A stretch of DNA of 64,000 bases from Membranipora membranacea (lineage: Eukaryota > Bryozoa > Gymnolaemata > Cheilostomatida > Membraniporidae): NCBI GenBank assembly GCA_914767715.1, contig OU612068.1, forward strand, positions 26,288,001 to 26,352,000, given 5' to 3'. Positions 4,066-63,813 of the stretch are shown piece after piece. A program made the translations under genes and the position numbers. The notes beneath the pieces are model-generated. The model did not search any database. It had not been told where the DNA came from and saw only the letters and a program-made list of their open reading frames with translations. Within the stretch, counting starts at the first letter, position 1. Each line of letters opens with the position of its first letter.

Positions 4066-4755
4066 CTAACTTTGAGGCTGCTATTTTGTATCACATCTTA
4101 TTCTCCATATTTAATTCTATCATGTGAGTGATTTCTAGCTGTAGAATCCAAATATTGAGGAAGTCATGGTCTCTCACACTTTCTAGATGACAGCAGTCAA
4201 ACGGCATTAAGAACCAGCGGACTCACCACCTTGTGGGACATCACAACGTGTCATACTTATTATGGGTTATTATGCTAATAATTCCACAGGTAGTTGATGA
4301 TCAAAATTCAGACCTGGATGGGACTCGAACACGGGTGTTTCATACCAGCAGGCGACGCCGCTACCATCGCACCCATAAACGTATAAATATTTATAAGTAT
4401 TTGTATGTTTATGATCGCACCACTAGGTCCAGCCCTACGAGACTGAAGACAATATAGGTCAGTGTTAGCGGCGTTGCCTGCTCGGCCAATTGGACCTGGG
4501 TTCGAGACCCTCTATATCCCTGAACATTTTTATCATCATCCTATCTATTAGTATATCATAATAAGTATGAGGCTTTTTTTTCGTCCCACAAGGGGTGCCC
4601 GCTGATTCCCAATGCCATTTGAAGGTGATCACCTTGAAAGTTTGAGATACCATAACTTACTCAATATTTGGATTCTAAAGCTGGAAATCGCTCACATGAT
4701 AGAATAAGATATGAAGAATAAGATGAGATATAAAATAGCAAGTCTCTAATGGTAT
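4066..4755. repeat. Long foldback element with tRNA-like arms
   Basis: Two arms of roughly 200 bases are inverted copies of one another. For example GAATCCAAATATTGAG at about 4145 recurs inverted at about 4660, and CTTGTGGGAC at 4233 recurs inverted at about 4590. Each inner arm carries a tRNA-like block with a B-box-type GTTCGAG (minus strand near 4330, plus strand near 4500). The element lies in intron 2 of the truncated lectin gene. It is either an inverted pair of SINEs or a foldback transposon. Confidence 0.7.
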
Positions 4756-4827: not shown

Positions 4828-4865
4828 GTTAGACCAAGGAGTGTCTTTAACTCCTTGGTTAGACC
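4828..4865. repeat. Mini-hairpin insertion with 8-bp direct repeats
   Basis: A 22-bp insert (4836-4857) with stem AAGGAGT/ACTCCTT is flanked on both sides by GTTAGACC (4828-4835 and 4858-4865). It belongs to the GGAGTT-core family described in the findings. Confidence 0.75.
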
Positions 4866-5355: not shown

Positions 5356-6162
5356 CTGCGAAGAAAAACAAATATATAAATAGATACAAATATTTAGACG
5401 CATAATTAAAGCTTTATATGTCTAGTTTGATTGGATTTTAAATTTTGAAATTTCAGTAGAATTAGCAGCCTAGTGTGATCAGGGATTCCATTCACCCTGG
5501 TGTGATATTGCTCAGTGTAGTTTTAATTTACAGGTACTTTTTTTTTAAACATTGAATTGATGACCAGATGGAGCAATTTTCAAACTCAAACCCAATAAAA
5601 ACCAACAACAAAAATTGTGGACTGCAAATTTTATGATAACATCAGCTACTACTACACAATCCAATGTTATAAAGTCACCCACTATTAGGTATATATGGTG
5701 TCCTGTGTATGGTTTCACACGATAAAAATTTTCCTATCAAAATATAATAGCTTGATTAAGATATTTTGATATTATTATAGCGTTTACCTTTAATACCATT
5801 TAATTTGCATAAATCATTTGAACGTATTTTCTTCTAAATACCTTATTCTTTTTCTCAATGGCTGATTTGGAAAAAAAAAACATTTCATAAAATGAAAGTA
5901 ATGCCAATCAAATTTTAACAAAAAAAAAGAAAAGATTACAAGGTTCCCAGAAAAACCTTTTCTACTTATTCAAGGAAACATTGAAATCTTGTTATTTTAC
6001 TTTTAGCAAAAATGCTGCTTGTTATTGCTCGTATTTTGTTTTTCTGCTTAGTTTCTATGTGAAATAAGTAGATGAAGTAGCTTTAATCGGGTAAACTTTT
6101 GGCCGAAGCTATGTTACAAATTTTCGCTTTTAAAAAATAAGTAAATGCTGTAGATAACCTAC
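5356..6162. other. Intron 1 of truncated PAN-lectin gene
   Basis: AT-rich intron sequence with homopolymer A runs. No nested gene or repeat was recognised. Confidence 0.5.
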
Positions 6163-8167: not shown

Positions 8168-9409
8168 GCCAACTAACTGTCTAAAGGTAATGAGTATACC
8201 TTGAAGAAATATATATCCATTGTCTTAACTTGAGATCCGTACATATGTATGTATGTTCAATCATAATCGAGCTACCACCCCTTCCCTTCCCTCTCCCCAC
8301 TATTGTCTATGGATGATTAGAGATGAAGATGGCTTTTCCATGTAAGATCAAGGCAATAGCTGCAAGTTGCTCAAGATCTTACAAACACTTTACCTTGTTG
8401 AAAAATTCGGTCAAGACTATTTAGGTAGCTCATGTGATGATATCCCATGGTGCAACATCCATTACGATCACATATAATTGTCAGATTTAGACGTTATACT
8501 TCACATTGGCTTAGAACAAGTGTATATGACTCATATACCTGTATTTATAACTCCGTCCTTTTGCGGTATTTTCAGACTTTTGTGGATTGGTGCTACTAGA
8601 GGAGCGCGGTTAACGATGCCCTGCAGACACGGCCACCATACGTGTAGGCAGGACACAGTTGAAACGTCTGTTTTCCTGCCATGTTTGGTGGTAGGAGTTT
8701 TTTATCAGCATTGATTTACATGAATTACAGTGAAAAATGATAATATAATGTTATTCTTTGCATTCTGTTATACGGTGTGTGTCTGTGATGAATTACAAAT
8801 GTTTTTGTGTACCCGTATTGTATGACCTTAGAACAGGGTCACCTGACCAACTGTTTTCAAATCACGATTGATGTTTGAGCAAAATCTAGTGCTTTTTCTG
8901 GTTAGCAACATTGGGACATTTATGACAACACCAGTGTAGCAATTGCAGTCTTTATTTATATTCATACCTCATGATCACCTCACTTCTTTTGCAATCTTGG
9001 TCAGGTAGGAAGTAATATCACTTTTTTTTATTGTAACTTTATATAATCATATAAATATAATTATATAAATGCAAGCATATTTTATGTGTATAAATATAAT
9101 ACTACTGATTTTATTTATTTACCATATTATTACGCCAGTGTATGTTAGAGATAACAAGCTGCCTGGGGTGAGTGGGGAATTACCCAGACAGCCAGCACAG
9201 GCCACATGCAACTGTTATTACCTTGGACTTAATAATATTATTAAGTCTAAAGTTATTACTCATTGGATTACTATATTTTTGTTATATGTTATTTTTGCAA
9301 ATATTTATTTACTGTTCTTTAGTGATATATATATTTTATGTCTGTGCTGAAAATACTGTGTCTCCTTATAATAATAATTAAAACTGATATATTTCCATTT
9401 TCATTCAAG
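8168..9409. other. Intergenic, nothing firm
   Basis: No supported gene. A possible 29-base exon (acceptor ...CGCCAG before 9136, donor GGGGTGAGT) would read YVRDNKLPG in phase with the open frame at 9410, but so short an exon is weak evidence. Confidence 0.35.
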
Positions 9410-13091: not shown

Positions 13092-13132
13092 GATTAAAGC
13101 AAGGAAGGAGCAACAGTTCCTCCTTGATTAAA
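13092..13132. repeat. Mini-hairpin insertion with 7-bp direct repeats
   Basis: A 27-bp imperfect palindrome (13099-13125, arms AAGGAAGGA and TCCTCCTT) is flanked by GATTAAA at 13092-13098 and 13126-13132. Confidence 0.65.
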
Positions 13133-13261
13133 AAAATTTAAGCTAATTTTTGTGGTCAACTCCAAAAGTGGGACTAGGTTCTCTGGCATGTGTCAGGCTG
13201 GCCGGCCAGAGACCCAGCTCTAAGTCCATGATCACATTCACAACAGCAAGGCCCACATCAT

Positions 13262-23955: not shown

Positions 23956-23997
23956 AGTGCATCAATGAACTGAACTGAGGGAGTTCATTGAGTGCAT
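23956..23997. repeat. Mini-hairpin insertion with 7-bp direct repeats
   Basis: A 28-bp insert (23963-23990) with a perfect 9-bp stem CAATGAACT/AGTTCATTG is flanked by AGTGCAT at 23956-23962 and 23991-23997. Confidence 0.8.
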
Positions 23998-24949: not shown

Positions 24950-27900
24950 ATGGATGTTGTGTATGCTGTCAAGAAATACATCACTGATATGATTGACCAG
25001 GCTGGGCCAGGAATGAAAGTACTCTTGATGGACAATGAGACGGTAAGTCAGTGGGCCTGTGATGATGATGATTCAATTCATCATCAAGGAGCTGAAACTA
25101 ACTCCTTGAATTGAATTAATCAATTGATGATTTGTATGCTTTGACCCACTTCCTTTGAAACAAACAGTGTTCATTATATCAAATTTTCCAATAGCACTAT
25201 CTTTCTGATCTTATCAGAATTCCAAAGTGTATATATATATACATATATATACATTTATGAAATTATAAGGGAAGGAAAGGGGCTATTAGTATTACCTACA
25301 ACCCATTTATTTGCTTATTATATACTTTGTATATATGCACAAGCCTTCTGCAGTTTGGGCCAGGCCAGTGGGCGAGGCCTCTACCACTGGACTTCACAAA
25401 CTACAGCAGGCCTGCAATTATGTAACTTGGACTGAGTGAAAACATATTTTACATGAATTAGTAACAGGGCCAATACACCCGCCTAGGAAGTAATTTTTTC
25501 CCCCAATTGCTATCCTATATGAAATTTTCCAGATCAGTATCGTGAGTATGGTGTACGCCCAGTCAGAGATACTACAGAAAGAGGTGTACTTGTTTGAGAA
25601 AATCAATGCCCCTAGCAGAGAAACAATGAAACACTTGAAATGTGTTGCCTTTGTACGACCTTCTGTGGACAACATAGCACTCCTCAGAGAAGAATTGCGC
25701 AGACCCAAATATGGACAATATTATATTTGTAAGTAGGCTACTATTTGTCAGTGTTGTCAATTGGGCAGGCTCTTTGCCACTTGTCCTATTGCATGAATGA
25801 AATGGAACCAGACCAATATCTTAAATTTGATGGAGGTTTATTCAAGGGTATCATTGACAACGTAGTGTCAAGTATCACTAACCCCATTATGAGCCTGACA
25901 CATTGTAACACAGGCCTAGCCTTGTCACGCGGCCACTTCCTTTTTGGTTTGGGTACCCAAAAGCCGTGACCGCGTGTCAAGGTTAACACAGGCCTACATT
26001 GAATGATTGCATTATCGTTGATTACGTTTGTAGACTTCAGTAATGTAGTCAGTAAACAAGATATTAAATACCTAGCGGAGGCCGATGAGCATGAAGCTGT
26101 GCGTGAGGTCCAGGAGTTCTTTGGAGATTATATCGCGATCAGCCCACATCTGTTTTCTCTAAACATAGTGGGCTGTAACTCCGTAAGCTGTCGTATATAC
26201 TCATGAAAAAGAATGAATTCCGAAGCTAAATCATCATTTATATTAGATCAGGTTTGATCCAGTATGTCTGCATTCCAGTTGCTCCCCATCCACTGGTCAC
26301 GCTACTTGGGGAACAACTCCGGATGCAGGGAAATGGACCAAACTTGGTCTACATTTATATGCAGAGAATAATCATATATGCAAGGCCTAGGCCTATATTG
26401 GTTCGATGGCTATCCCACATATGACTCTGCTGATAACTAATACCCTGGTGTTAATGTAACAGATAGAAAAGGAACTGTATGAATATAGATTTTCCTTTCT
26501 TAGGAAACAATATACTCGAAAGGACCATGACCAGTTCCAAGCTGTTTGAAAGTTTGAGCATGTCTATATATCATGATTCTGTTATTTCTATAATTTCTAA
26601 TTAAGGGTAATGAGTGGAACAGAAAAGCGTTACAGAGAACTGTAGAAGGCCTCACATCTGTATTATTATCTCTAAAGAAATGTCCAATGGTGCGATATCA
26701 ATCTAACTCAGAAGTCACCTACAAACTAGCTGAAGCAGTGCGGGTAAGGAAAACTATCTTCATGTGTTACGGTATTCATAATTCTTAAGTTCAGCACAAC
26801 TCATGTAGTTTCATGCTATATTCAGCATGAAGGTGACTTTATAATCGATCGTGTTATCCCTTCATGGGTCTCACTTGGACATGCTTAACTATACTTTACA
26901 GCTGTGTCCGCTCCCTCATCTGTTTCTTTTGACTAATAAAATGGAATCCTTTCTTTGCCTCTGCCTGTAGCTGGTCCCTACCTCATCCGGTATGTAAATA
27001 TCAACTGAAATAAAGCACCTGCCTAATCATGATGTTGACAACAATTAATTGTGAAAATGAAACCATTCCCTCCCTCATGGCAAATTGAGTTATCAACTTT
27101 CCTGGCCTTGTGTATACCATGCAGTGTTATGATAGTTATATGTAAGCTATATTGAAGGTATCTAATGAAAAATCAAGTTGCCATTGTGTACATAGTACGA
27201 AATGTCTATAAAATGGACAGGATTAGAATTCATTAGGACAATAGACAGTTTAGAGCTCTTATTTATGCCTCAATTCGGAGTTGTCCTCTCTCCAGTTTGG
27301 TACTTTTAACCCACACAGCATAGGGAAAACCTGCTAAAAGAGGGTTATCTTGAAAACCGCTTATGTTAGGATAAAAATGATTTTTGATTCAGAGTCTGCA
27401 CCATTGAAAACCCTGTGAAACAGGGTTTCCAAATCATTGGAGGCTTGAATGTTGATAAATCTTAATTTGAGTGAATCATGAAAAATTCTGCCAAATTGTC
27501 CGCAAAACAGGCAGAAAACGCTATAATTGACTATCCAAATACTAAAATAAATTCCCAAACTATGTCCACATAAGTTTTCAATGTTGCAGATTCTGAATCA
27601 AAAATCATTTTTATTCTAACACAAGCGGTTTTCAAGATAACCCTCTTTTCAGCACGTTTTTCCTATGCGGCGTGGGTTAAAAGTACCAAACTGGAGAGAG
27701 GACAACTCCGAGTTGAGGCCTAAATCAGCGCTAAGAAAACTGTCTATTATCTCAAATATCAAAGTTTGACATTTACCTTTTATAACTGGTGAATGTTCAT
27801 GTGACTCTTATTTAAAATAATGTCATATCATAATGAAGGCCTATAGAGCATTGTGACAGTTCAGCTCGATGTTTGCTGTTGAATTAATGTTCTTTCTGTT

Positions 27901-30900
27901 TTATGATATGGTTACAGAACACCATATCTCGGGAAGCCTCACTATTTGACTTTAGGAGAACAGACGTTCCTCCACAACTTATTATATTAGATAGAAAAGA
28001 AGATCCAATCACTCCCCTACTCAATCAGGTATTCAAATATCTACACATGTAATGTATATATTTTTTATCAGCACAGAATTAATATATTTCACGGCGAGTA
28101 AGACACCTTTCACAAACAATTGAAAATATAATACTACAAGCCTTGGGCCTGCCTGCTCATCAGAATGGCAAAAAAAGGCAGGAGAGAGTAGAGAAGCCAC
28201 TCCAAAAATTAAATTAAAAAAAAGTCGAAAATATTATTTTTCATAGAATAATCCATGCTTTATGAATACCCATAAAAGAATTTTTAGGGCTTCACAATGA
28301 TAGATGGTTAAGCTGCATTTTTCATACAGACTTTGAAGCTTTCATCCTGTAATCTTCCTCTGGGAGCCAATGGTTGATCGTGTCAGATTCTTTTATGCTA
28401 GCATTGATCTTGTCTCATCTAAGATATCTGGGAATTGACTTATGATGTGTTCTATTAGGCCAGAAGCAGCTATAATAGGAGCAGCAGCTAGACCGCCACC
28501 TGCTTTTTTCCTGCCATCAAAATTCTTCCACGCCATCAATCTTTTAGCACTAATGGCTATGCTGCTTCTTGGCAAAAAATGAAACCTTTCAATTCAGCTT
28601 GTAGCACATTGGTAGTATTTTTAATCAGTATTGATCGTGCTTTGTTTCTAATTTTCTTCTTACAGTGGACATATCAGGCCATGGTTCACGAGCTTCTTAA
28701 CATACAGAATAACAGAATAGACTTATCTAAAGTGCCAAACGTTCCCAAAGAGCTTCACGATATTGTACTGTCAGCCGAACATGATGAGTTTTATGCCAAG
28801 GTAGGATAGCAATGCATACCATCTATCATTTATGGGAGGGACTTATGACATCGGTTATTCTCCACCGCCCTGCAAATTCGACTGAGCAGTCATCAGCCAC
28901 AAACAAAAGAGATATGATTTATCATGTGGCATATGTGACCTATACGCTCAAAAAAGGGGTTACTACCAAAATATGACTTGAGATGCCAGTCTCTGCATCG
29001 ACTGCTTTTGATTTTTTCGGTTATCTAGTTATCAAAGAGCTAAACGCTTGATAAATGATAGAATGGCAATCTTAGCTAATAATAGTAAGTTTCGGACATG
29101 CCATTCTATTTTTTCACATTGATGTACATTCTGAGCACTTAAAAGCAAAATCCTGTTCAACCAATAGACTTTGGAAAGAACCTTTTATGATAGCGCACTT
29201 GAAGTTTTGACAATGATTAAAAATTCAAATATTCTGCGCCAGGTTACGTAATTTAAATTTTCATCAGACTCAAACATATTAAACAGTGTATCCATTGACT
29301 GTATTTATATTATTTCTATAGAATTTTGCTGCAAATTTTGGTGAGATTGGTACAAATATAAAAGAGCTGATGGAAGAGTTCCAGAGAAAATCCCATCAGC
29401 AGGGAAAAGTGGAGTCCATAGCAGACATGAAAAAGTTCATTGGTATGCCATAAATATGACTCTACTTATCCGGTATAGGAGATCCACCTCTTTTATTATC
29501 AGTACAAATCATTTGCAGTTTGTGGAAGTGATAAGCAGATCTAAGACTTGTTATATTGGTTGTTTTGGATGCAAAACCATGTTCCTTTACACTGGTTTTA
29601 TTTATTTGAACACATTTCAAATGCTTGTTGAAATATCCCAGCCATATTCGAGTTTAAAAGATTTTTAACCTGCATGAAAAGTTTTCTCTCTGAAGTAACA
29701 GCTTATCCTAGCCAGCTTGCCGATTTTTGCATAGAGGAGGTCATCTCCCCACTCCCAAACAAATTTATTGGGTCAGGCTATACCAACCACATATTTGCCA
29801 ACACTGAAAATCTGGTGCTGATATTTTTGTGGCACCCACTGTATATATATTATATATACATTTCATTACTAGAAACATATCCGCAGTTTAAGAAGATGTC
29901 TGGTACGGTATCTAAGCATGTTACTCTGATGTCAGAGCTGTCGAGACTGGTACAGAGTAAACGTCTGATGGCCATATCAGAATTAGAGCAGGAGATATCA
30001 TGTCAGGGTGAACACAGTAAATCTCTACAGGTACTCTACTATATCATTATGTGCAATCATAGGCACCATTAGTGGGTCATTTGTGTCTCCTATCCACAAG
30101 ACAAGCGCAGGATAATGTATCCGCACGATGAAAGTAATATCATACTATTGTCAGGTTGATGAGTGTAACGATGTCGTAGGTAGAACCTTGAGACAATGGT
30201 ACAAGATATAGGCTGTTTATGTAATTTAATTCTAAGAACCAGCCTTGAAGCCATTTGATATGAGTTCAAACTTTGCATGCAGCACCATACTGTATTAAGA
30301 TTTTTAGGTACAGTTTGGAGTTCTCCTCTTATCTGTTCATACGTCAAGGAGAAGACAAATCCTATTAAAGGGCAACCAAGGTTTCGCAGCAATGCGTTAA
30401 TGGGTAGCAAATAATGTGCTGGGCAGCATCAGCTTTGTGCATTACGCGATGCAAAACTCAAAGTAGTTGCTGACTCTAAGCTGGGTAACACTTCAGTTTA
30501 GGGGAGGTTCCAAGACTTTGCTGTAATAATTATAGAGCACAGGCTAAATAATAACAGGAACAGGAAACTGCTATGTGGTATTCTCTTTTAGCTGAGTTTG
30601 AGTACCTGATGGAAGAAATGTTTCACAAGAATTCTGGCTGAATAATCATCCGAATTATATTTTGTCTTTTTCCCCATGCAGAAGGTGCAATCTGCAATTA
30701 ATCAATGGCCATCAATGAGAAGTTGTTTGAAACCTTGGTTGCCCTTTAAGATAATGAATTGAATTTGATTTTTTTGTATTTCCAGGAGATCCGAGCTCTT
30801 ATAGCGGATGATAATGTACGTATGATGGATAAGTTGAGGCTGGTGATGCTCTATGCACTGAGATATGAGAGCCATACTAACAATGATGTCCATGGCCTGG

Positions 30901-33900
30901 TGGATACACTCACCAAGAAAGGTCTTCCAGAGAAAGATAGAAGGGTATATTGTGCTTTATATTATGAACTACAATATTACAAATTTACGGATATGCTAAG
31001 CTAGCAAATCAAACTTTTAGTGATCAAATCGAAATTTAGTAACTGATCTGAGGGTTTGGGGAAAGTAAACATTGTTATAACTGCCAATAAAGGGGAAGGG
31101 AAACAAAGTTTGGTTATCGATGGAATTTGCAATGACCATCCACATCACACTTCTTACAATTTTTAAAAATTGAAGAAAACTTTGCTGCCCAAGTCAACAC
31201 TCCTTTTTCCATGTGTGCTTTGACTAAACTATTGAACATGTCCTGATGTTGTAGATGGTAGGTTATATAATTGATTATGGCGGACAGAGAAGAAGGAGTG
31301 CTGACTTATTTGGTACACAGTCTCCTATGTCTATGACTAAGAGGTTCTTCAAAGGACTGAAGGGAGTAGAGAATATATACACACAGCACGCTCCTCATCT
31401 AGCAGACGTCCTCGATCAGATGGTCAAAACTAAACTCAAGGAGTCACAGTATCCATTCCTTACAGCCAGCGAAGTTAGGGAAAGGTAACTACCAGTCCAT
31501 CATCTGAAGTTGTTGAAGGGCTCAAACGTTGCCTGCTTTGATGGTCGTAGCATATCACTATCAACCATATTCCCATGTTGTTTGAGATGTGGCTGATAAT
31601 GAAGTTCCAATACCAGCAACCCGGACAAGGATTATAAATACTTGATCCGGACAATGTTTGAGACTGATCAGTCAACTTGGTCTTTGTGTTTTGTCTCCCT
31701 CCCTCCTTACCTGGTCCTTCCTTCACAAGAGTGAAACTCTTATGGACAAAAAGGAACCTCAAAATCTACCAGGTGATTTCCTGGACACATTAGTGATGAC
31801 CTCCTGCCTAATTAGCTTAACCTGTCAGATCCTGGCCTGAAGTTTTCTCTCAATCTAGGGTCCTATAAAGCTAGATGTGAAAATATGTTTCTGTGAAAGG
31901 CATTCACTTGGCAATACCCATTATCAGTCAATTAATCTATAATTGCAAAACACTATACCCAGATGTTACCACCCTTCAACAAAATAGGCACAAAAACGAC
32001 CAAAATGAACCAATAACCCAAAAAAACTATTTTGAAAGAAATGGCTTGTTGTTACAGTTAAAGGCGGAATATGGGAGATACAGATGTTTCAAATACCATA
32101 AGACAAATATATGATGAGTTTTCTATGTTTCGCTTATTTTCAGACCTCAGTGTATCATAGTGTTCATAGTGGGTGGAGCGACATACGAGGAAGCAAACTG
32201 TGTTCACAACTTCAATAAAGTAACTCCAGGAGTCAAGGTCGTGCTAGGTGGCTCAACTGTTCATAACACTAAAAGGTAAATATAACAACAACCTTATCGT
32301 ACAAAAAGATTGATTGATTGTATTGCTATCACTTACAACAAAAGTTATGAGAAAAATGTTGCTGGTACACGTACTCTGCTTGTAAAAATAGTGAAGTTGC
32401 CGTGCATGCAAAAATAGGGTTGGGAAATAGATTGTTGATATAAAAGGATGAATATCAGTCCACAAGAGAAGAGCATGCCGAGATATTTATATATTCAATT
32501 TCATCTTCAATTTGAATTTATGTCAATTTATGTTGTTATTCAAATACTACTATCTAAATCAATATTCAATCTATTTTTGTCTCGGTTGGGATTATTATGC
32601 AAATATCATCATAGCAATATCCTTATCAGAGTCCTGTGATTAGTATTAGGGGTGGAGGAGTAATAAAGGTAGCGACATTACATAACCCCTTCAAATTAAT
32701 TAGTATTATTTCATTGATCTGAGATTGAGCTCGACATATAAAGAGAACAACCCTAGATGTTCAAGTCACTCTTTTATGCAAGTGTTCTTTTTCCTAAGTT
32801 TATAAATTGTGCCCAAAACTTGGCAGACTGATGAACACTTGAAAAGGCCAAGTTGATCCCTTCCACTGGTCACGCCGGCTGCGCGACTTGTGGATCACGA
32901 GCAAATGGACCAAATTTGGTCTAGGTTTACACTAAGAAAAGATATCTATGTTAGTGTAAAGCTAAACAAATTGGTCATAATGGTCACAATGGTCATAAAT
33001 ATATACTGAAATTACAAGTATGTCAATTTAGCTACTACACCTACTCGTATCTAATTAATTATATAATCTCAAGTAGTTGTGAGACAGTGATGGTTCAGCT
33101 AGGATATTATTCCTATATATTTTGCATTATTTAATTAGTAGTAGTATTGATGAATTAGTGAGTGTTTGTCACTTCCTATTTCCAGATGAATTATTGATGT
33201 ATTTAAAAGAATACTAACTTAGTTATATTATAAGGTATGCCAGTTTATATCGTGAATGACCGTCTGTATATGGTAATATGTAGTTAGGCTGACAAATTGA
33301 TTTTTTCTGCTGAAAACAGGAACTATAAATCCACTGGGGATTGATTACTGGTAGTTTATCATGTGTAGTATTCCACCTGCTGTTCAGTTATGTAAAATTG
33401 ATAATAAATCTAGATGTGTAGTCTAAATAGGCTATATTCAATCTAGGTACTAAACATCCTAAATTCGATTTTACAAATGTTATGGTTTGTTAGATAATGG
33501 CCCTGTTAGGTCAGCATTATGGCAGCGGGAGACACACAATATATTGGTCATTACTATATAATAATCAAATGAACATTATTCCTATTCTGCACCCCTGTTG
33601 GGCCAATGAGAATATGGTTGCGTAATATACACAAGTATCATTATCTGTGCAAGGACGAAGTCAAAATTTCGACCGGAACATGCAGACCATTACCTCACGA
33701 ACTTATAGGAATTTGAAAATGACCAATCAAAATATTACAGTATCAAACTGATCAAGAACTACAATATCAGTCTGATCAAAAATTCTGAGAATTGATATGC
33801 GGAGAATAGTCAGCTCCTACAAAAGGAGGTGTATTTTATCTGATTGTAGTTTTTTGGAGGAGGTGCAGGAAGCATGTTCCAGTCCAGTGATCAGAGAAAA

Positions 33901-40300: not shown

Positions 40301-43300
40301 TAGTTGAATCATTTTTACTCCATCGCACCGATGAGGGAGTTCATTAGGATATCGTATCAATCCTGATATAGCGCTATACAGTATAACTGACTTTTCTATA
40401 TTTTTATATAGAGGAGTCAGCTTTTATATGGAGTCAGCTTTCTATAGAGTGTAGGCTATAGTTGACTTTTTATATTTTTTGTTAGCTGGCGGTAAATGTT
40501 AGGGAAATTCGAGTTTTTGCGAAGGTTCCAACTCACTGGTCTGGTTTGGGTTTTTTTGTCGGTCATAACTGAGTGATCATTTTGTTGCATAAGCTGCTTT
40601 CTAAGGCAGGGCAACGACTTCAAGTTACCACTTTGTGAATACAATGCTAGTGAAGTGTTATTCAAACACCTGTGCTATAATCCTGAATATTTACTGGCTA
40701 ATGTTATTGTCCCGCATTTAACAAAGGGGTACTTTGCTATCAGCATTCTATCAGTGTATTTTAGGACTCACACCTAGTTGCAAACTGTGTTGGGCCCTAA
40801 TATTAGAGGTGCTTATTACTTGTAAGGTTTCCCCCCCCCCCCCCCCCCCTAATATTAATCCTCCTTAGGCAGTAGGCCTATTACATTGATATCAACACTG
40901 TGAGAATAAGTCAAAACTGACAAAGAAAGCGTAATAAAAACCCCAATCCGAACATCTTTTGCCTATGGGTACCGACTCCACATGAGAGATATGACACCTA
41001 GTAGGCCTCACTGATAATATTTTGTAAATATAGTTCTTAGCTACGCTTTACCACCTTTTCCCACAAACCCAAATTCTTGAGAGGGCTAGCATGCTTCTGC
41101 ATACCAATTATTTACCGATGCTCAGTTGATAAGAGGACAACTGTTACGGTAGATGATTGGGTATGCAATAATGGAAATTAGTTACTGGGAAGTTTTGGAG
41201 CCAGCGTCGGAGCTTTTTCTTGATACAGTTCTTTGTTGGTGATCTCAAGATTACACAGCTTAACAATCTATGCCGTACAGCTTTTAGTAAACTGCATTGT
41301 TTGCTCATTTTGGAACCTGATATATCCTTATAGGCATGAAATCATGTAATTTTTGATTGTTGTGAGGCCCATATCACAAAGTAATCTACTGCTCTACCTG
41401 CTCTCCATTCTGTGCACATTTTATGATGAAAACCATTTCGTCCCTTTGTAGGTGAATCTGGCCTGGGAAAGTCCACACTGATCAACAGCTTGTTTATGAC
41501 AGATCTGTACAAAGACCGGCGTCCCCTTGGTGTTGAAGGTTAGTTGCATTACAAAATTAGGTATTGGAACCTGTTTCAAAACTCAAGAGAAGACAACCCA
41601 GTGAGGAATGCAGATTAAAAATTATGATAAATTTGTGGTGTTTTGGTTTGAGAGATTGAACCGTCAATTTGTGCAAGATTAAATGATGTATTAAACATGC
41701 TGCACATGGTACCAGAATATGAGTTTACCACAGAACATAGTGATGGAAGCTATATTAATTGCGTTCAGCTGAAATCAGCAAGGTCTCCCTACCAGAGCCC
41801 CATCCCCAGCAAGTTACCTCAGGCTAGATGTCTTCCATCCTCCCTGCAGCAATAATACCATATAGATGATTGATTCATATATTATTGCTAGCACCTGTAA
41901 CTATGACTTAGGGCAAAACAAAACTGACTGTCAGATGCAAACTACAGCACTGACACAAGTTTGACGCTGTGCCGATTTTTCACATGTTTGATCACATCCC
42001 TCTTCAAACTTTGAAAACATTACGGTAATCCGTCAGACAGACTCAGTGCAAAGTTCATCCACCTGTTGTAACTAAGATGTCACAAAACAAATACGTCTGT
42101 GTGATAGAGAAGTTTTGGGGGGGGAGGGGGTGGATGGGAGTGGGGATTGTCTTGTTTTCTGGAGCAGGTCATCCCAGATAGGAGTCTATCGGTTAGTATA
42201 TCCGAAATTTGACCCTAACCAAAAGGACCAGCTTACCTAACATACAATATTAAGATGCCGCTTGCTTTTCCTTGCCTTTGATGTTATCGCATCAACAATG
42301 ATTATAATTGCTATCGTGACAGCCTACTCAAAAACTTCACTGAGACAATTATGTAAAAATTCATCTACCGAAGGGAAGGTGAATAATAGTTTATGCAACA
42401 ATCTGTCTCATTACGACCAGTGATGTGTTTGGGTGTAGTTCTTCTGGGAAATTAACCTTCGGCATGCTACACAATTAGTATTTTCCTGTCTCCATAGAAA
42501 TCTTTTCACACAAATCAGAATGTTGTGCTCGAAATGGAATAACATAGGTGTTAATTTTTCATGGAAGGTTGCCTAGGCCCGCAACGACAAAACAAAGTGT
42601 CAGCTAATTGAATTGCCAATCTTATTCAATTTCCGCTAAATTACTACCTTGAGCTTGTCTGTTAGAATGAAGGGTGGATAAACACAGTCTGCGAGCATGG
42701 ACATACAAACCCGTCATTCTAAAACTCGGTAAAAATACGCAATGTGGTATGGCGGTCAAGCTATCCGGAGGAAAAAACAAGCAATATGCACGAACGACTG
42801 GTAACCGATCTAAGTGATACATATAGATAGACTCGACAGACTTATTATGGTGATACATTAACCTGACTGTCAATAGGATAGACAGGCTGTATTATGCTGA
42901 TTATGTTTTCATTACCTACCCGTACGTCCTGGGTATATCATGTCATCCCACATAAACATCAGTATTCCTAACGATACTCAGTAAACTTAGATCGCAAGCA
43001 GAGTGAGAGAGGATCATTGATGCATGTAAATGGTGTGATCAACTATTGTTATGATTTTTCTCCATAGTGGCATAGGTTTACAACAGTAAATAAAAGGCCC
43101 ATTTAACTTTTCAATCGGATTAAGTCTACCCCTAAATCTGAAACAACTGTTGATCAACCAAACCATGACCACCACATGAAAAAAGGAATTTAATCTCAAT
43201 AAATATCTCCTTTTCTACTAAAATCATCTCATCTGATGAAGATAATAACCGACGAAAGTCAACTATTTCTATGTCGGTTGCATGATCAGAAGAAAAATTT

Positions 43301-49236: not shown

Positions 49237-51590
49237 TCATTTATCGTCTACTCCTGCTTGTGTCATGAGATCAGCTATGTTCTTTTCGAGGTCATCGATT
49301 CTGTTTCCCATGTCATCCAGTAAACATAACAGTCAAGGAAAACAAGCAAGGGCATACAAAACACAGAGGCTTATCAAAGCATACTTCTTCAGCAGAGAAA
49401 ACCAGCATATGCATTACTAACTGCTTTGATACATGCTTAGGCGATTTGTTATTATTTTGTTTTTATAATTTGTATTATCCACATAACTCAAGCAAAAAAT
49501 TATATACCAGTGTGTCAATAATTGGTGAAAGTCAAACGTAGAATGAAGCATGTCAAGCTGCTATATAGTTATTTATGGCTTTCACACCCCTAATGTTTTT
49601 GTGATTGTGATTCATAATCCAGATATAGTTGGGCTATATATCATCATTTCTTCTCAAATAGATCTAATATTAACTGTTCCTATGATCGGTAATAAATGGA
49701 TGTGTAGGAGGTGGATGATTAAATCAGAGAGCATTTGAGTTTACTACCATAGCCTGATTGTTTGACTGCATTGTACATAATATATCATACTGGCCTGTGG
49801 GGTGAAACCAAGGACAAGGGATATACCTACCTAACAAGTTAACAATCCAGTCATAATGAAGCATACAGGGATATCTAGTTTCAAGAGTTGTAATTCGACT
49901 TAATATATAGGCAATATATAATATACATATTAGACATGGTGTGTTCCAAGATAGAAAAGGATATATCGTGTGATGATCTGATCTGACATAGTTTTAAATT
50001 TGTCCTGCATCTGCTGGAGAATGTTCTGTACCTGTAAAGGAGCAAACGATATCTTGTTAGAACGCTAGTGTGACAACTAGTGTGACAACGTACTTTTATT
50101 TTAAGTTACTTATCAAATGTATACTGACCTCAAACATCTTGAAACACTCAATAACCCTGTGACAACCAAGCAGCTGCTTTGTCTGAACACTTGAAACTTA
50201 TCTTAATTTATATTGCTTATCAGCATTAAACATTTGTTGTAATGTATCAAATTTGGCTTGAATTTTTTTTAAATAGCCTAATGATATATTTTTTAATTTC
50301 AAATGCTATATTTTTGCAGCAATGACACATTACAGCGTCTGGCAGCAAACCTCTTGAACAACTGTTAAATGGGGTATCATATTCAATCTTTTTTCAGAAG
50401 ATAAAAGCTGTTGTCTATATACAATACACAAATGCACCTCTTAAAGTTCTAAAACGGGGTGCCGTACTTCTGACAGCCACCTGCTATTGTCAATCATAAC
50501 TGGTCTAGAGTCAATGTCAACTACAAAACCCTTATATTGTATAGGAAGATAGCTAGCCATTACTTTCAACTACTGCACAGCATTACGCCAAACCAATGAA
50601 CTCCCTCATTGGCCAAACTATCTAGTAATACTGCTGATCTGAATGTCCGTCAAAAATCAGATATGTTCTCATAAGTCACATTATTCGGCGGATCGGATAG
50701 TTGAATGTTAGTGACCATAAGTGTCAGGCTATGATAACTGTGCAACGATTCACTTTGCTTGCAGGAAGGTCAAACCGTACTAAGACACAAGAGTGAACTC
50801 GCTGCAAAAGGACAAATGTGCAAAACATCAGCAGTTGATCTAACCAATGAACTCCCTCTTGAGGAAGTTCATTGATCTAACCAGCTGGAAAAACTCCCAC
50901 ATTACAATAACTCAATCATCAGATCACAATATAATAAATGAGCCGACTAATCTACCAACTTATCATTGATATATCATATAGGATTAATCAATTGATCATT
51001 GAGACTGCTATTGAAAACTTACTCGGTGAGATGGTTGTTAGCAACAAATCTTATCATCCATTGGGCTAATTAGGTGTGTGTTCTATCATTTGACAACCAG
51101 CCTCAGACAGTTCTAATTCAGTCTGGTCCTATGACCAGTATGATGTTCCATATTATCATACAATTGGAGTATGATATATTCATTTTTATTAATTATTACC
51201 TATTATGATTTATTTACTCGCTCCACTGTATGGCCCATTTAAATTTTTCTACTAATTGACAATCACAATGACTTGAGAATGATGCTCTAAAGATTCACTT
51301 TATCAACGGATAGTCATAAGTAAGGTAAGGAAGGGCAATCATTATAGTGATGCACACCTGCATCAAACCAAGGAGTTAGAGGGTAACTCCTTGATCAAAC
51401 CAACAAGAAGGTTAGTACAAAATAATAATATCTAGCTAGCTTCAAAAAAATATGAAGCTTTTTTTTACTAATAATGATGAAGTTGTAAATGAAATCATCC
51501 TTATATCCATGTGGTACTTACAAAGACTGTCAAGTCTTGCACATTCTGTGGGTTTGCCTCTGCAGGTGTCATTACATCCATATCAGACAT
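49237..51590 (-). CDS. HSBP1: Heat shock factor-binding protein 1
   Basis: Small coiled-coil protein that binds trimeric heat shock factor 1 and damps the heat shock response, in the nucleus and cytoplasm. Three exons: 51522-51590, 49965-50031 and 49237-49319; product 72 residues against 76 in human. Exon 1 reads [20 protein letters not shown], exon 2 [20 protein letters not shown], exon 3 [20 protein letters not shown] followed by AGVDDK. The run of hydrophobic heptads and the near-identity of MQDKF.TMSDQII and [18 protein letters not shown] to animal HSBP1 make the call firm. Intron 1 is GT-AG; intron 2 is AT-AC and of the U12 type. Tail to tail with septin. Confidence 0.96.
49320..49964 (-). 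other. AT-AC U12-type intron of HSBP1
   Basis: The intron starts ATATCCTTTTC after ACACGAT and ends TTATGTTTAC. TTCCTTGAC, an exact U12 branch-site match, places its branch A at 49333, with 13 bases before the exon. No usable GT-AG pair joins the two conserved exons. Phase 1 at both sides gives TTG (Leu) at the junction. Confidence 0.93.
50587..50618. repeat. 18-bp mini-hairpin with 7-bp direct repeats
   Basis: CAATGAACTCCCTCATTG (50594-50611) is flanked by GCCAAAC at 50587-50593 and 50612-50618. HSBP1 intron 1. Confidence 0.75.
50835..50883. repeat. 25-bp mini-hairpin with 12-bp direct repeats
   Basis: Insert 50847-50871 has arms TGAACTCCCTC and GAGGAAGTTCA (one mismatch, 2-base loop). It is flanked by perfect TTGATCTAACCA at 50835-50846 and 50872-50883. 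HSBP1 intron 1. Confidence 0.88.
51362..51403. repeat. 22-bp mini-hairpin with 10-bp direct repeats
   Basis: Stem AAGGAGTTA/TAACTCCTT; flanks ATCAAACCAA at 51362-51371 and 51394-51403. HSBP1 intron 1. Confidence 0.85.
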
Positions 51591-52873: not shown

Positions 52874-54275
52874 TTACCTCAAATATTTTAGAACACTCAT
52901 AAACTCCCTAGGTGGTATAAATGTTGAGTGCCTCGTGTGGTAAGGCCTTTTTGAGACCGTGTTAAGTCTGAATTCTGGCATGTAGCCATTGTTTAGTGAG
53001 TATTGGTGAGACCCGATTCGAAGGTCTCGGATGGTTTTTGTAAAGAAACTGTTGTGAAACGCTGCAGATGACGCTTGTATAGAGGTGGGCTCCCCTCTTT
53101 TAGCTGCCCTTGTTTCCATAGTATTTTGAGATCAGCAGTTTACAATTTCATCATAATCAGAAGATAGGGTCTCATGTTTGTTCTGATCTGAGAGAATTCT
53201 CATCAGGAGTGATACTCTATGGGATTTTCTCCTTTCTTGTAAGGTCTGAAGTACGAGGCTAGAGCGCCCCTCGGTAACGCTGTGCCTGCCCTTAATACAC
53301 TTTACAAATCTAATGGCTTTGTTTTGTATCAGTTCAAGTTCACCTATGTTGGTATTGTCAGATGGATCCCAGAGCACATCTGCATATTCTAGCTTAAGGC
53401 GGATCAAACTGGTATAAGCGAGTAAATTAGCTTTTTGGGGAGCTCCATATCGTGTGTACTTGATACAGCCTAAAGTTTTGCTTGCACTACCCATAATCTC
53501 CGATAAGTGGCTTCTGAATTTGAGGTCAGACTGTCAGTGTGACTCTAAGATACTTTGTGGTGTAAACACATGTGAGAGTATGTCCAGAGATATTGTAATG
53601 CAGCTGTGGTGTGACTCCTTGGTTAAACGCTATGACTTTGCATTTTGTTTCATCGAAGGGCATCTTGTTCTTAATTGACCAATCAACAAGCAAGTAAATA
53701 TTCTTTTGGAAGCCAATCTCATCGGTTTAGTATTTTACTTTGGTGTAGATAAGCGTATCACATGCGTACAGGCTAACATTACGTGTGACTGAGGTAGGTA
53801 AATGGTTTATATATAGCAGAAACAGAGTAGGCCCGAGGACTGATCCCTGTGGCACCCCAGAGGTTATGGGTAAAGTTCCAAACGCAGCGCCTCTCACATC
53901 AACCTTTTGAAATCTTCCCGGGAAGAATATAGGGGTCAATGTTTTCGTTTTGTCTTATTTTGTTTATAAGTAATTTGTAAGGCACTTTATCAAAGGCCTT
54001 TTGAAAGTCTAACACTACGACTTGGACAGTAATAGATCGTTCAGCAGACTTAGCAAGCTCATGATACGTTGCACACAGCTGTGTCTCACCCAATAGTCCT
54101 TTACGGGATCCATGTTGCAAATAGCCATCAGAGTGTGTGAGTGACAGTCACACTTAGAGGTCGATACAAGGTAAACTAGATTGGATGGCCAGTTAGCACT
54201 GCCGGATGGGTATTGATCATAAATGGATAGCCCTTTTATAGAGATGTGTGGCAGATGGCCATTTACCGGTCCCAT
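52874..54275 (-). mobile_element. Dead LINE reverse transcriptase fragment
   Basis: Minus-strand pieces in shifting frames encode motif A (VVLDFQKAFDKVPY, near 54010), motif B (SGVPQGSVLGP, near 53850), a mutated motif C (YACD in place of YADD, near 53765), and a C-terminal part (LKLEYADVLWDPSD, LIQNKAIRFVKCIKGRHS, near 53300-53400). The catalytic Asp change and several frameshifts show it is inactive. It belongs to a CR1/Jockey-type clade other than that of the 1-2.9 kb element. Stop-containing C-terminus at about 52874. Confidence 0.85.
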
Positions 54276-60299: not shown

Positions 60300-61133
60300 G
60301 TGAGTATTGGATTAAGAGTGTCTGAAAAGTCTCATTCCATAAAGTGTAAGATAGTAAAGTGTTGATTACGGGCCTTGTTGGGAGACATTTTTTGTAAAGG
60401 GCGCAACTTAAATTGTTAAGAAAATAAAAAACAATCGCTGTTCAAATCAAAGTAATCCCATAGCAATAAACAAAAAAACTAAATGAACTCGCACAAGGAC
60501 ATTATTGAATGATATAACCAATTTCAAAGTGCAAAAACCCAGGGTCTAGTAGGGTCTAGAGTATGTTATCTCCCCTGTTACGGAATAGCACTAAAATATT
60601 GTTCACTAGGCTAAATTTGACCAATACTGTTTTGTGATCATTTCTAAAGTAAGTATAAGAGCCTAGTAACTATCCTAGGCAAGCCAGTACTAGGCTTACC
60701 GTTATACTGTTAGTGGATCATCATTTTGGTATTAGTCTGTCGCAGGGGAGATAACATACCCTAGACCATTTTAGACCCTTCTAGACCCCTCTTGACCCTT
60801 CTAGACCCTTCAAGACCCTGGTTTTTGCACTTTGAAACCGGTAACAACATTCAATAATGTCCTTGTGCTAATAAATATTGTCTTTTGTTCAATGGTATGA
60901 AAGTATTTGATATGAACAGTGGTTCTTTTTTTGCTTTTCTTAACACTTAAAGTGTGCAGGATACGCCTCATCATTAAGAGGGCAACAAAGAGTTTAAATT
61001 GACTTGAAATTTCAAAGGCATTAGCAATTACCCAGTCACACCAACACGGCCCACTGTGTCTGAACTTTGTTGAGCTCAGACAACTTGGTATGGAGGTATC
61101 ATCATCTGATGAAAGGAAAACAATTCAGCTTAT
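60300..61133. other. RECQL4 intron 9 (start)
   Basis: Intron sequence mostly occupied by the inverted-repeat element at 60398-60962. No RecQ helicase exon was found here or up to 64000. Confidence 0.5.
60398..60962. repeat. Long terminal-inverted-repeat element, 565 bp
   Basis: Arms of about 180 bases: GTTAAGAAAA, CTGTTCA.ATCAAA, GCACAAGGACATTATTGAAT, TTTCAAAGTGCAAAAACC and AGGGTCTA return inverted. The right arm has extra short GACCCTTCTA-type repeats (60774-60825) that the left lacks. No transposase frame. Confidence 0.88.
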
Positions 61134-63813
61134 CTAGCCAATAGCCACCCTCTGTACACATGTGCTCCTGAGATAATGTAATTTAATTACTTCATTTCTG
61201 AAAGGCCTGTGTATCAACATTCGGCCTGCGGGATAGTCTTGGGTCATAGACTTTCTCTGCAGCACAGCAATGTTGGCACTGCTCCCATCAATAAACCAAC
61301 TCCCATAGTTTAAGGTTGTGAGATACCAAAACCAGTGTTCCATTGAGGCCCAAATATTTCCAAATGATCGGATAGAATAGGCTTTATTTTTTCCTCCATC
61401 AGAAAGTTATCTAAAAACGCTATTCTCTAGAAATTACCATATTTGAAAAAGAAACTTCTCAACTTCCAGTCCTACAGTGAGGCATTCCCACTGCCTATGA
61501 CACTCTAGTTTGGCGGTGGGTATTCTTCACAATGTTTTTGTGAAGAGGATGGTCATCGTTGACAAGTATGGTTTGGTAGTTGTTTTGGTATTGCTGCTCA
61601 ATTTATTTTGAGAGAGGTGGAATTTTATATGCTTACAGGTAGCTTTTCTAGTCTAGATCTGCATTCATTGCTCTCATTTTCTTCTCTGACAATTTGATCG
61701 TGACTATTTCAGTTACCAGCCCTGACCATGCTGGGCATACATATTTCAGCCTTGATTGAATATTCGAGAGATAGAACTGTTTGAGTCCCGTTGATTACAA
61801 ACCCAATCTCTTCCGCTGGCGCATAGCATATAATCAAGGCCAGAGACTTTCAGTAACATCACTTACATGTTTACTGAAAGAGAGCCGTTTATCTACGGTC
61901 ACACCCAGTAGCTTTGCGATGGGCAAATTTCTCATGCAGTACGTTTATGATTGATGTGGTTCTGACAGTGATAGATTTATAAGTTGAGTTTTATAGACCG
62001 TTTTCTGAGCTTCAATTTAAGCCTATGTTCGGAGTTGTTCTTTCTCCAGTTTGGTACTTTTTATTCTACGCAGCATAGAAAAAAAGAGCTGAATTGGGCC
62101 CAGAAAACTGTCTATTGGCATCTATGAGCATCTTGTTGTTGTGTGCCCATTCCTCTATGTTGTTTAAGGCAGTCTGGGAAGCTTGTGGGTTGGACGAAGC
62201 TTTGTTGATGGTTGTGTATAGCGTCATCGGCATATTTCACAATCGGCATGTTTGTCATTGCTAGATCATTAAGGTAGAGTGGTAGACCAACCAAGACCAA
62301 GGTCCGAGTTTCGTTCCTTGTGGGGCGCCTATTTTGATGGTTCTGTAATTTGATCTAGCACCCATTCTCCCGCAAGAAGAAAGCTGTCTATTAAATGTAT
62401 CAGACCAGCATCGAAAGAGAGTGTTTGGAGTTTGCCAATGAGGATATTTGTATCATTTCTATCAGAAGAAGCTTTAGACATGTCAAAAAGGTAGGCAGTG
62501 ACATGGCTGGTCTGCTGTTTTTCAAGGTTGCTGCACCAGTCATGTATCACATGGAGTAAAGCATCTGTTGTGTTCTTCCTCTGCTGGTATGCGTATTGAC
62601 TAATTGCCTCAAGTTTCTGACCTATCTCTGCTATGAGTTTTCTTCGGATGACTTCTTCGGCTACTTTTCCTATAATTATGGAAAATTAGTTGGATTGGCC
62701 GGTATTCACTGGGTGTTGATGGGTTTTTAGTTTTCTTCGGTGGTCTTATTTCACCATTTGGAGACATTGGGTGGGGTTCAGCATGCAGTTAATGATATCA
62801 GTCACTGGTACGCGTATATCCTCAAACGCAGATTTGCTCACCCAATTGGGGAAATCCGCTTGTTGTTGGTAGATTTACTTGTGTCTAGATTACATAATAC
62901 ATGTATTTGCTTCACCTCTCCTACTGTTGATTTACTGAGGTGTCCTGTTCGCCTCCAACGTTCACAAAATACTCAGTTGGGATGTCTACCAACCAGTTTA
63001 TCTGTGGTAACCCATGTATCATCTATTAGATTGAATATTGTTGAACGCTTTTGAGTTTTCCCCTCCATTTCTTGGATTACCTTCCACCAATGAACTCCCT
63101 CTCCCCCGTGCACCTTGCATATACACTGCGCAGTGGTCGTCCTCATTACCTATCAACGGTGGCAGGGCTTCTGGGGCAGTGTAACTATTAACGTCAAACA
63201 ATTTGATCCAAAACAGCATAACCAAGGGTACAGAAAATGATACAACATTTCATGTTAAATTGATTGCATTAAAATTCCTATTGAAGTGTCCTATCATCAT
63301 GATTTTAACATTAGGGATTTTGGAACTCAATTTACACAATACACTCTCTAGGACGGTGGGTGATATACTGCTCAGAATAATCTTAGGCATCTCAGGATGT
63401 CTCACCAGCAACCAGACTGCAGACACTGTCGATCTGTTAAGCCTGTCTATCACCTTAGCATTGATACTGGAGAGTATGTACATGGCAGCACTGCCGCCAA
63501 CACGTCTCACTCGATTAGAACAGAATAAACTGTAGCCAGGTATTTGGGAGTTGTCTTCTCTTTCTCTCGTAAACCATGTTTCAGTAAGACATGTCACGCC
63601 AGGGTCATAAAAAGCTGAAGATGGAAGGAGCATTGAGTTTGGCTTTTTGTTTGTGGTGGTGCAGTTGTTGGTTGGTATTAGATTGTTGTGTCCGGTTTTT
63701 CCAGTGTTAGTTGACATTTGGTTGACCGAGCACTGTACACTCGGCTGGGTACCATAGCCATAGTGGGGGGTGTGACCAAGGACGAGCATTACACCCGCTC
63801 TCTGCATTCCCAT
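61134..63813 (-). mobile_element. Decayed LINE with endonuclease and reverse transcriptase
   Basis: Minus strand, in order: an APE-type endonuclease part at 63250-63640 (VTCLTETWF, GYSLFCSNRVRRVGGSA, MMIGHFN in place of the usual GDFN), finger/palm blocks at about 62450-62700 (KVAEEVIRRKLI, QYAYQQRKNTTDALLHV, LFDMSKASS), YADD at about 62230, and a thumb block KLLGVTVDKRLSFSKHV near 61890. Frameshifts and altered catalytic residues show it is inactive. It is split by the element at 61992-62127. Confidence 0.82.
61992..62127. repeat. Inverted-repeat element nested in LINE
   Basis: Ends ATAGACCGTTTTCTG and CAGAAAACTGTCTAT are inverted copies; the interior GGAGTTGTTCTTTCTCCAGT and TTGGTACTTTT match the arms of 27240-27748. 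It sits between the YADD and thumb blocks of the surrounding LINE. Confidence 0.8.

What the first reader, a model, noticed from the sequence alone, without database searches (positions are those of the whole stretch)
50835..50883. Tiny palindromic insertions with perfect target-site duplications: a candidate new micro-element class
Seen directly: seven short palindromes (inserts 18-28 bp, one 65 bp) are each flanked by a perfect direct repeat that differs at every site. They are 4828-4865 (GTTAGACC), 13092-13132 (GATTAAA), 23956-23997 (AGTGCAT), 25906-25996 (TAACACAGGCCTA), 50587-50618 (GCCAAAC), 50835-50883 (TTGATCTAACCA) and 51362-51403 (ATCAAACCAA). Four of the small ones share a GGAGTT/AACTCC core in stems of two kinds (CAATGAACTCCC... 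and AAGGAGTTA...), and 50594-50611 has the same core in its loop. Known: MITEs and SINEs leave direct repeats but are several-fold larger. Inference: either a hairpin-ended DNA or RNA is captured at staggered breaks, or these are end remnants of a larger element. The variable repeat length (7-13 bp) argues against one strict transposase.
Basis: partly seen in the sequence, partly recalled or inferred. Interest (0 to 1): 0.88.

Follow-up and report, generated by a model that had tools for sequence, protein, structure and literature searches.

The report
Excision scars of P-type jumping genes
The tiny palindromes are most likely the scars left where P-element-like jumping genes were cut out and the broken DNA was joined again; in this genome such scars seem to far outnumber the surviving elements, so it keeps a natural record of how its chromosome breaks were repaired.

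Summary
In detail: all seven palindromes with direct repeats are present and exceed chance. A new micro-element class is not supported. With insert ends set at CA...TG, five of the seven have an exact 7-bp target-site duplication (TSD) and a sixth 6/7; the "variable 7-13 bp" is chance extension. The seventh (25906-25996) does not fit. In the 339-Mb genome the tip CAATGAACTCCC occurs 2758 times (reversed control 15), but the inner part of its 33-bp terminal repeat only 79 times. Of 50 sampled tips, 44 stop matching that repeat at 12-19 nt, 6 run the full 33, none stops at 20-32. Fly P-element excision junctions joined at 17-nt tails look the same. The genome has 78 P-transposase matches; one 4.9-kb element with an 8-bp TSD was bounded. 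One scar is absent, with a single repeat, from four sister copies.

The parts
50838..50881 (+). Family-A scar: TSD ATCTAAC, insert 50845-50874 CAATGAACTCCCTCTTGAGGAAGTTCATTG, TSD ATCTAAC
   Evidence: Exact 7-bp TSD; tips match the 33-bp TIR of longer elements for 16 nt on one side and, with one mismatch, 14 on the other
50587..50618 (+). Family-A scar: TSD GCCAAAC, insert 50594-50611 CAATGAACTCCCTCATTG (14 nt of one tip joined to ATTG)
   Evidence: the same joint occurs at L029 6786-6803
23956..23997 (-). Family-A scar: TSD AGTGCAT, insert 23963-23990; 14 nt tip, 5-nt filler AGTTC beside an identical AGTTC, 9 nt tip
51362..51400 (+). Family-B scar: TSD ATCAAAC, insert 51369-51393 CAAGGAGTTAGAGGGTAACTCCTTG
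4828..4864 (-). Family-B scar: TSD GTTAGAC, insert 4835-4857
13093..13133 (+). CAAGGA-tip scar, TSD ATTAAAG/ATTAAAA (6 of 7)
   Evidence: related tip CAAGGAGGAA with exact TSD at L036 8756
5473..5506 (+).
   Evidence: not found with 6-bp tips
4366..4421 (+). Scar-like palindrome with 8-bp repeat ATCGCACC and tips CATAAACGTATAAATA / CATAAACATACAAATA
9214..9259 (+). Scar-like palindrome with 8-bp repeat GTTATTAC; 30-bp insert close to the L036 649-678 scar CATAGACTTAATAATATTATTAAGTCTATG (decayed tips)
   Evidence: the comparison is by eye
40329..40346 (-). Probable decayed family-A scar (TAATGAACTCCCTCATCG), no direct repeat seen
   Evidence: read by eye
25085..25108 (-). CAAGGAG...CTCCTTG palindrome without a matching direct repeat, between the first two VPS45-like exon matches
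63088..63101 (+). Exact 14-nt family-A tip without palindrome or direct repeat
25906..25996 (.). 65-bp palindrome with 13-bp repeat TAACACAGGCCTA; not assigned to the scars
   Evidence: not among the abutting CA...TG / 7-bp cases

Best explanation
Each small palindrome is the healed excision scar of a P-superfamily DNA transposon, mostly non-autonomous MITE-like copies. Steps: (1) the element inserted and duplicated 7 bp (in some families 8 bp); (2) transposase cut it out with a long staggered cut, leaving about 17 nt of each terminal inverted repeat as a 3' tail on each flank; (3) the two tails, having the same sequence, were joined by microhomology, fill-in or short templated insertion. The result is TSD + up to 17-19 nt of one tip + a variable joint + up to 17-19 nt of the other tip + TSD, which looks like a tiny palindromic insertion. 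Shown: strict 7-bp TSD, CA tips, longer elements with the same ends, the retention limit, absence of one scar from sister copies, P transposases in the genome, and one bounded 8-bp-TSD P element. Inferred: that a P transposase made the cuts in the 7-bp families, and the repair pathway.
For: Strict length: in window + L017-L036 (264 kb), exact repeats abutting 6-bp complementary tips number 29 at 7 bp against 0, 0, 0 in three shuffles; 6 bp gives 5 (shuffles 3, 0, 4) and 8 bp gives 2. The 33 at 10 bp are all one tandem array in L020, and part of the 18 at 5 bp are the same scars read in another register. With CA and 5-bp tips in 360 kb (window + L017-L066) there are 33 at 7 bp (shuffles 0, 0), 0 at 6, 5 at 8, 0 at 9; twelve other start dinucleotides give 6 in all at 7 bp. 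Parent elements: 33-bp TIR CAATGAACTCCCTCTTCCTCAGGAATAACAACA with exact 7-bp TSD at L028 and L027 and 6 of 7 at L030; 24 pairs of inner TIRs lie 503-2125 bp apart, 16 of them 820-890 bp. Retention: of 50 exact tips 44 stop at 12-19 nt, 6 run 33, none 20-32. Numbers: 2758 tips (control 15) against 79 inner TIRs (control 0). Joints differ; CAATGAACTCCCTCTTC|ATTG recurs in 3 of 27 rows and is what the last three bases TTC of a 17-nt tail would give by pairing with GAA of the other tail. Target preference: T at position 2 and A at position 6, pairing in 0.74 of 31 sites against 0.26 background; Galileo, a P-superfamily element, has mostly 7-bp TSDs with consensus GTATTAC. P transposase cuts 17 bp inside the element; fly germline junctions in lines lacking Rad51 list TSD + up to 17 nt + filler + up to 17 nt + TSD. 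Transposases: 78 PF12017 matches, 0 of 14 control genomes; L048 has THAP, P-HTH, RNase H and GTP-binding domains and matches P transposase 6p5a. Bounded element C2:141332-146264, 4933 bp, about 500-bp TIRs (91% identical), TSD GTTAGATC on both sides. Empty site: L059 insert of 32 bp (25 + 7) absent from L044, L051, L065, L066.
Against: No transposase gene was linked to the CAATG, CAAGG or CAGGG tips: the nearest of the 78 PF12017 places to any of the 79 family-A inner TIRs is 67 kb away (the PF12017 count is a lower bound by the tool's own note), so the P assignment of the 7-bp families rests on anatomy. The bounded element has an 8-bp TSD and another tip (CATAGACC). The limit is not exactly 17: 8 of 44 tips match to 18 or 19 nt (one, L030, is the end of a deletion derivative), more than chance extension would give. 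Some tips have no palindrome or abutting TSD (window 63088, L020 4233 and 5443, L022 4001 and 5941, L029 3128), and L024 3768 has its direct repeat in another register (by eye). Family-A palindromes such as L036 5018 and L032 4776 lack a 7-bp repeat with at most one mismatch (not among the rows). A scar-to-element ratio this high is unusual for cut-and-paste elements as I know them, and the count is biased: a 20-base pattern decays faster than a 12-base one, other subfamilies may share the tip, and L017-L036 were chosen around tips. The genome-wide count of whole scars could not be made.
Confidence: 0.87

Rival explanations
1. The palindromes are mobile in their own right: 16-40 bp micro-elements copied or moved as units.
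For: High copy number of the tip, true TSDs and an empty site; a few joints recur at different sites (3 of 27 and 2 of 27 rows).
Against: Centres differ from copy to copy while the tips are those of 0.3-1.6 kb elements. Retained length is unequal on the two sides and limited to 17-19 nt. The recurrent joints are explained by microhomology.
Confidence: 0.04
2. Scars of another cut-and-paste superfamily such as hAT.
For: hAT targets also show T near one end and A near the other of the duplication, and CA starts occur in hAT ends (both recalled, no call). The genome holds an insertion with an 8-bp repeat at L056 1870-2637 that I would guess to be hAT-like (label recalled).
Against: hAT excision cuts at the element border and does not leave 14-17 nt of each terminal repeat (recalled). 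The retention limit and 7-bp TSD match P-superfamily members, and P transposases are present in number. No search for hAT transposases was run.
Confidence: 0.07
3. Internally deleted elements produced by interrupted gap repair (copying from a template) rather than by direct joining of the cut tails.
For: L030 is a 313-bp deletion derivative whose left tip breaks at 19 nt, and incomplete repair synthesis is common after P excision in wild-type flies.
Against: Interrupted copying would leave retained ends of all lengths; none of 50 tips stops between 20 and 32 nt.
Confidence: 0.07
4. Chance palindromes or slippage products.
For: Many AT-rich hits of the first scan may be of this kind, and tandem arrays mimic repeats at 5 and 10 bp.
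Against: 0 to 0.2 expected against 5 in the window and 29 in 264 kb at 7 bp; 5 of 10 core-tip palindromes against 0 of 81 others.
Confidence: 0.01

Closest known systems
Drosophila P element excision junctions (P{wa} assay, PMC2895639; passages seen)
   Same: Direct target repeats, up to 17 nt of each terminal repeat, microhomology or templated filler between them
   Different: 8-bp repeats and tip CATGATGAAATAACATA in flies; here mostly 7-bp repeats and tips CAATG, CAAGG, CAGGG; natural and spread over the genome rather than induced at one site
Galileo, P superfamily (PMC4168063; passages seen)
   Same: Mostly 7-bp TSD with T at position 2 and A at position 6 (GTATTAC); long terminal repeats, as in the 4933-bp element found here
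   Different: The passages seen describe element copies, not scars; terminal sequences were not compared
Zebrafish Pdre2 / THAP9 (PMC10983969; passages seen)
   Same: THAP plus P transposase; CA-starting short TIR; 8-bp TSD; the window MITE 23431-23839 has tip CATACATGACAA, matching 10 of 12 of Pdre2 CATACCTGTCAA
   Different: 8-bp, not 7-bp, duplication; different tips from the scars
MITEs
   Same: The family-A elements of 0.3-1.6 kb have TIRs and TSDs; no transposase was seen in the three copies read, but their reading frames were not searched
   Different: The palindromes themselves are far shorter (16-44 bp) than these elements

Membership tests
P superfamily (source of the 7-bp scars) | TSD of 7 or 8 bp | tested here: met
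   Strict 7 bp; a few 8-bp families
P superfamily (source of the 7-bp scars) | Staggered cut about 17 nt inside the element | tested here: inconclusive
   44 of 50 tips stop at 12-19 nt, none at 20-32; 8 of these 44 pass 17 nt; inferred from scars, not from cleavage
P superfamily (source of the 7-bp scars) | Termini beginning CA (seen for the fly P element and Pdre2) | tested here: met
   33 CA against 6 for twelve other dinucleotides together
P superfamily (source of the 7-bp scars) | P-type transposase encoded between the termini | tested here: inconclusive
   P transposases exist in the genome, but none within 67 kb of the 79 family-A inner TIRs; families B and others not tested
P superfamily (element C2:141332-146264) | THAP and P transposase domains between TIRs with TSD | tested here: met
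   8-bp TSD GTTAGATC
P-element excision footprint | Two TSD copies, both tips partly kept, variable joint | tested here: met
P-element excision footprint | Full element at the same site in an ancestor, sister or other individual | not testable with these tools
   No second individual or relative is held (note in the answer)
Self-mobile micro-element | Conserved whole sequence including the centre | tested here: not met
   Centres differ
hAT superfamily | hAT transposase linked to the termini | not tested
   No hAT family search was run

The most novel reading that the evidence does not exclude
This lineage has purged P-type MITEs by mass excision without reinsertion: a transposase, possibly domesticated or expressed at a stage when breaks are healed only by end joining, cut out nearly all copies of several families. 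That would leave on the order of ten thousand or more scars and only tens of intact elements per family, a genome-wide natural record of how one defined kind of break is repaired in the germ line.
Probability: 0.15. Interest if true: 0.85.

Novelty: new variant of a known kind. Interest (0 to 1): 0.6.

Why it matters
P excision junctions are known to me from induced breaks in flies. A genome that appears to keep thousands of them, in several families, one with its tail sequence worked out, would let the repair of one defined break be studied over evolutionary time in an animal without genetics. It also raises a direct question: why tips outnumber inner terminal repeats about 35 to 1 (2758 to 79). 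Short palindromes with direct repeats in other genomes may be overlooked scars rather than elements.

Tried and rejected
Micro-element with variable TSD: rejected after re-placing the ends. Excess at 5 bp with CA tips (14 against 0 and 2): 13 of 14 are one tandem array at L017 9359-9740. Excess at 10 bp (33 against 0): all 33 are one tandem array in L020 from 4.5 kb on. Scar pattern in bacterial genomes: 16 stretches, about what chance gives for 20 fixed bases and 26 gap lengths in 257 Gb (my estimate about 12); none used except as a control (127 palindromes, 0 repeats). Scar pattern in viral contigs: 0. Linking the 7-bp tips to a transposase: not achieved. Naming the species: not achieved; the RT search and transposase search gave mostly unnamed metagenome proteins.

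Paper searches on footprints, palindromes and P elements listed no report that I recognised as a genome-wide scar population of this kind; only listings were seen for most papers, and searches failed. Passages were seen of PMC4168063, PMC10983969, PMC7776569 and PMC2895639; no paper was read whole.

Rows dropped or doubtful: of the 27 rows, L017 7955 and 8086 are one duplicated scar, L019 5224 belongs to another tip family, L022 1088 is diverged, and the insert limits at L021 5513 and L031 4877 look mis-set by the script; seven of the 27 rows have one TSD mismatch. One search left out L017 9300-9800 (tandem array). In its L017-L036 row 52 of 265 palindromes have core tips and 22 of these have the repeat, with 4 at shifted places; in L037-L066, 3 of 125 are core and 1 of 3 has it.

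Full report
What was checked. The seven structures exist as described. Scanning for exact repeats that abut the palindrome places five of the seven at exactly 7 bp with inserts that start CA and end TG, and a sixth at 6 of 7. The control that keeps the palindromes themselves is the clearest: of 91 CA...TG palindromes in the window, 10 have the tips CAATG, CAAGG or CAGGG, and 5 of these 10 carry an exact abutting 7-mer repeat, against none of the other 81; shifts of -3 to +15 give two more in all, both outside the core tips.

Where it lies. The window is C4:26288001-26352000 of a 339.3-Mb assembly in 18 contigs. It contains VPS45-like exons at 24950-32273 (using a recalled human sequence) and LINE-type reverse-transcriptase reading frames, so it is eukaryotic, probably animal.

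Parent elements. The tip CAATGAACTCCC occurs 1382 + 1376 times in the genome, the reversed control 6 + 9 times. Twenty 10-kb stretches around tips (L017-L036) contain many palindromes like those of the window and three longer elements with the same ends: L028 4702-5593 (892 bp, TSD ATTGGCT), L027 4056-5645 (1590 bp, TSD CAGTCGT) and L030 4928-5240 (313 bp, GTCTGTG/GTCTGCG). Their terminal repeat is at least 33 bp (the left end of L030 keeps only 19 of it). A 20-base piece reaching into its inner part occurs 39 + 40 times in the genome, control 0, with 24 pairs 503-2125 bp apart. Of 50 exact tips in the held DNA, the match to the 33-bp repeat ends at 12, 13, 14, 15, 16, 17, 18, 19 nt in 3, 5, 12, 6, 2, 8, 3, 5 cases and runs the full 33 in 6; none ends at 20-32. 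One of the 19s is the left end of the L030 deletion derivative.

Several families. In 264 kb, exact 7-bp repeats with 6-bp complementary tips number 29 against none in three shuffles. Besides family A there are tips CAAGGAGTTA, CAAGGAGGAA, CAAGGGTAAAC, CAAGGGATATTA, CAGGGAGTTTTGG, CAGGGATAATGG and CAATGAACTAAACC. Leaving out family A, 14 scars with exact TSD lie in window + L017-L036 (counted from the list), which would be roughly 18,000 in the genome if those stretches were representative. They were chosen around family-A tips and the window was chosen by a reader, so this is only an order of magnitude. No element of 60-4500 bp with a 7-bp TSD and nine identical terminal bases was found for these other tips in the held DNA; the four rows printed are two family-A elements, one pair of neighbouring scars in a tandem array, and one candidate with tip CACTACCAG at L020 1957-5384. 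A smaller group has 8-bp repeats and CAT tips, such as L036 649-678 and window 4366-4421.

Insertion, not chance. A 25-bp scar with TSD GTTTGAG in L059, a copy of a P transposon, is missing together with one repeat from the four aligned sister copies L044, L051, L065 and L066. A duplicated scar in a tandem array of short units at L017 7948-8125 is absent from other units of the array. Two scars sit one behind the other at L019 4509-4575, sharing repeats, which suggests repeated visits to one target (inference).

Why P elements. P transposase cuts 17 bp inside the element ends (PMC7776569). Fly germline junctions after P excision, as listed for lines lacking Rad51, have the same layout, with 17-nt tails and templated insertions (PMC2895639). 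Galileo has mostly 7-bp repeats with consensus GTATTAC (PMC4168063); the scars here prefer T at position 2 and A at position 6 (84% each after symmetrising; unsymmetrised pairing 0.74 against 0.26). The genome has 78 matches to the P-transposase HTH family, none in 14 control genomes. One locus, L048, has THAP, P-HTH, RNase-H-like and GTP-binding domains and matches Drosophila P transposase 6p5a. Its element runs from C2:141332 to 146264 with about 500-bp inverted repeats and TSD GTTAGATC; whether it is functional was not tested. It has an 8-bp TSD and is not the parent of the window's 7-bp scars. The transposase of the 7-bp families was not found: the nearest P-transposase place to a family-A inner TIR is 67 kb away.

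How joining may work. In 3 of 27 rows the joint is CAATGAACTCCCTCTTC|ATTG, expected if the last three bases (TTC) of a 17-nt tail pair with GAA in the other tail. In 2 of 27 it is CAATGAACTCCCTC|ATTG. Other joints have filler, for example AGTTC repeated beside itself at window 23963-23990. This resembles microhomology and templated joining; the enzyme is inference.

What remains open. The count of whole scars, the fillers genome-wide and the B-family totals could not be obtained because the genome search did not complete. The 65-bp palindrome at 25906-25996 is not explained. No second individual or relative was available, so full element, scar and empty site at one orthologous place has not been seen.

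Noticed in passing
window 23431-23839: A 393-bp MITE-like element with perfect 8-bp repeat CTCAAGAC and tip CATACATGACAAGT, close to the zebrafish Pdre2 tip.
   Followed up: partly
window 25906-25996: 65-bp palindrome with a 13-bp perfect direct repeat, between two VPS45-like exon matches; ends and length do not fit the scars.
   Followed up: partly
L034 6327-6400: 60-bp palindrome starting CTAG with exact 7-bp repeat AGTTATG, extendable to 9 bp; possibly another kind of scar.
   Followed up: no
window 1129-2904 (-), 53132-53533 (-), 62329-62685 (-): Reverse-transcriptase-like reading frames; the first is 84% identical to an unnamed database protein; the other two are judged by eye only, with no Pfam match.
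   Followed up: partly
L017 9359-9740 and L020 from 4521 on: Tandem arrays that mimic 5-bp and 10-bp target repeats in scans.
   Followed up: yes
window 27254-27732 and 60473-60886: Nested long inverted repeats, possibly fold-back elements.
   Followed up: no
L019 4509-4575: Two family-A scars in tandem sharing TSDs, suggesting the same target was used twice.
   Followed up: partly
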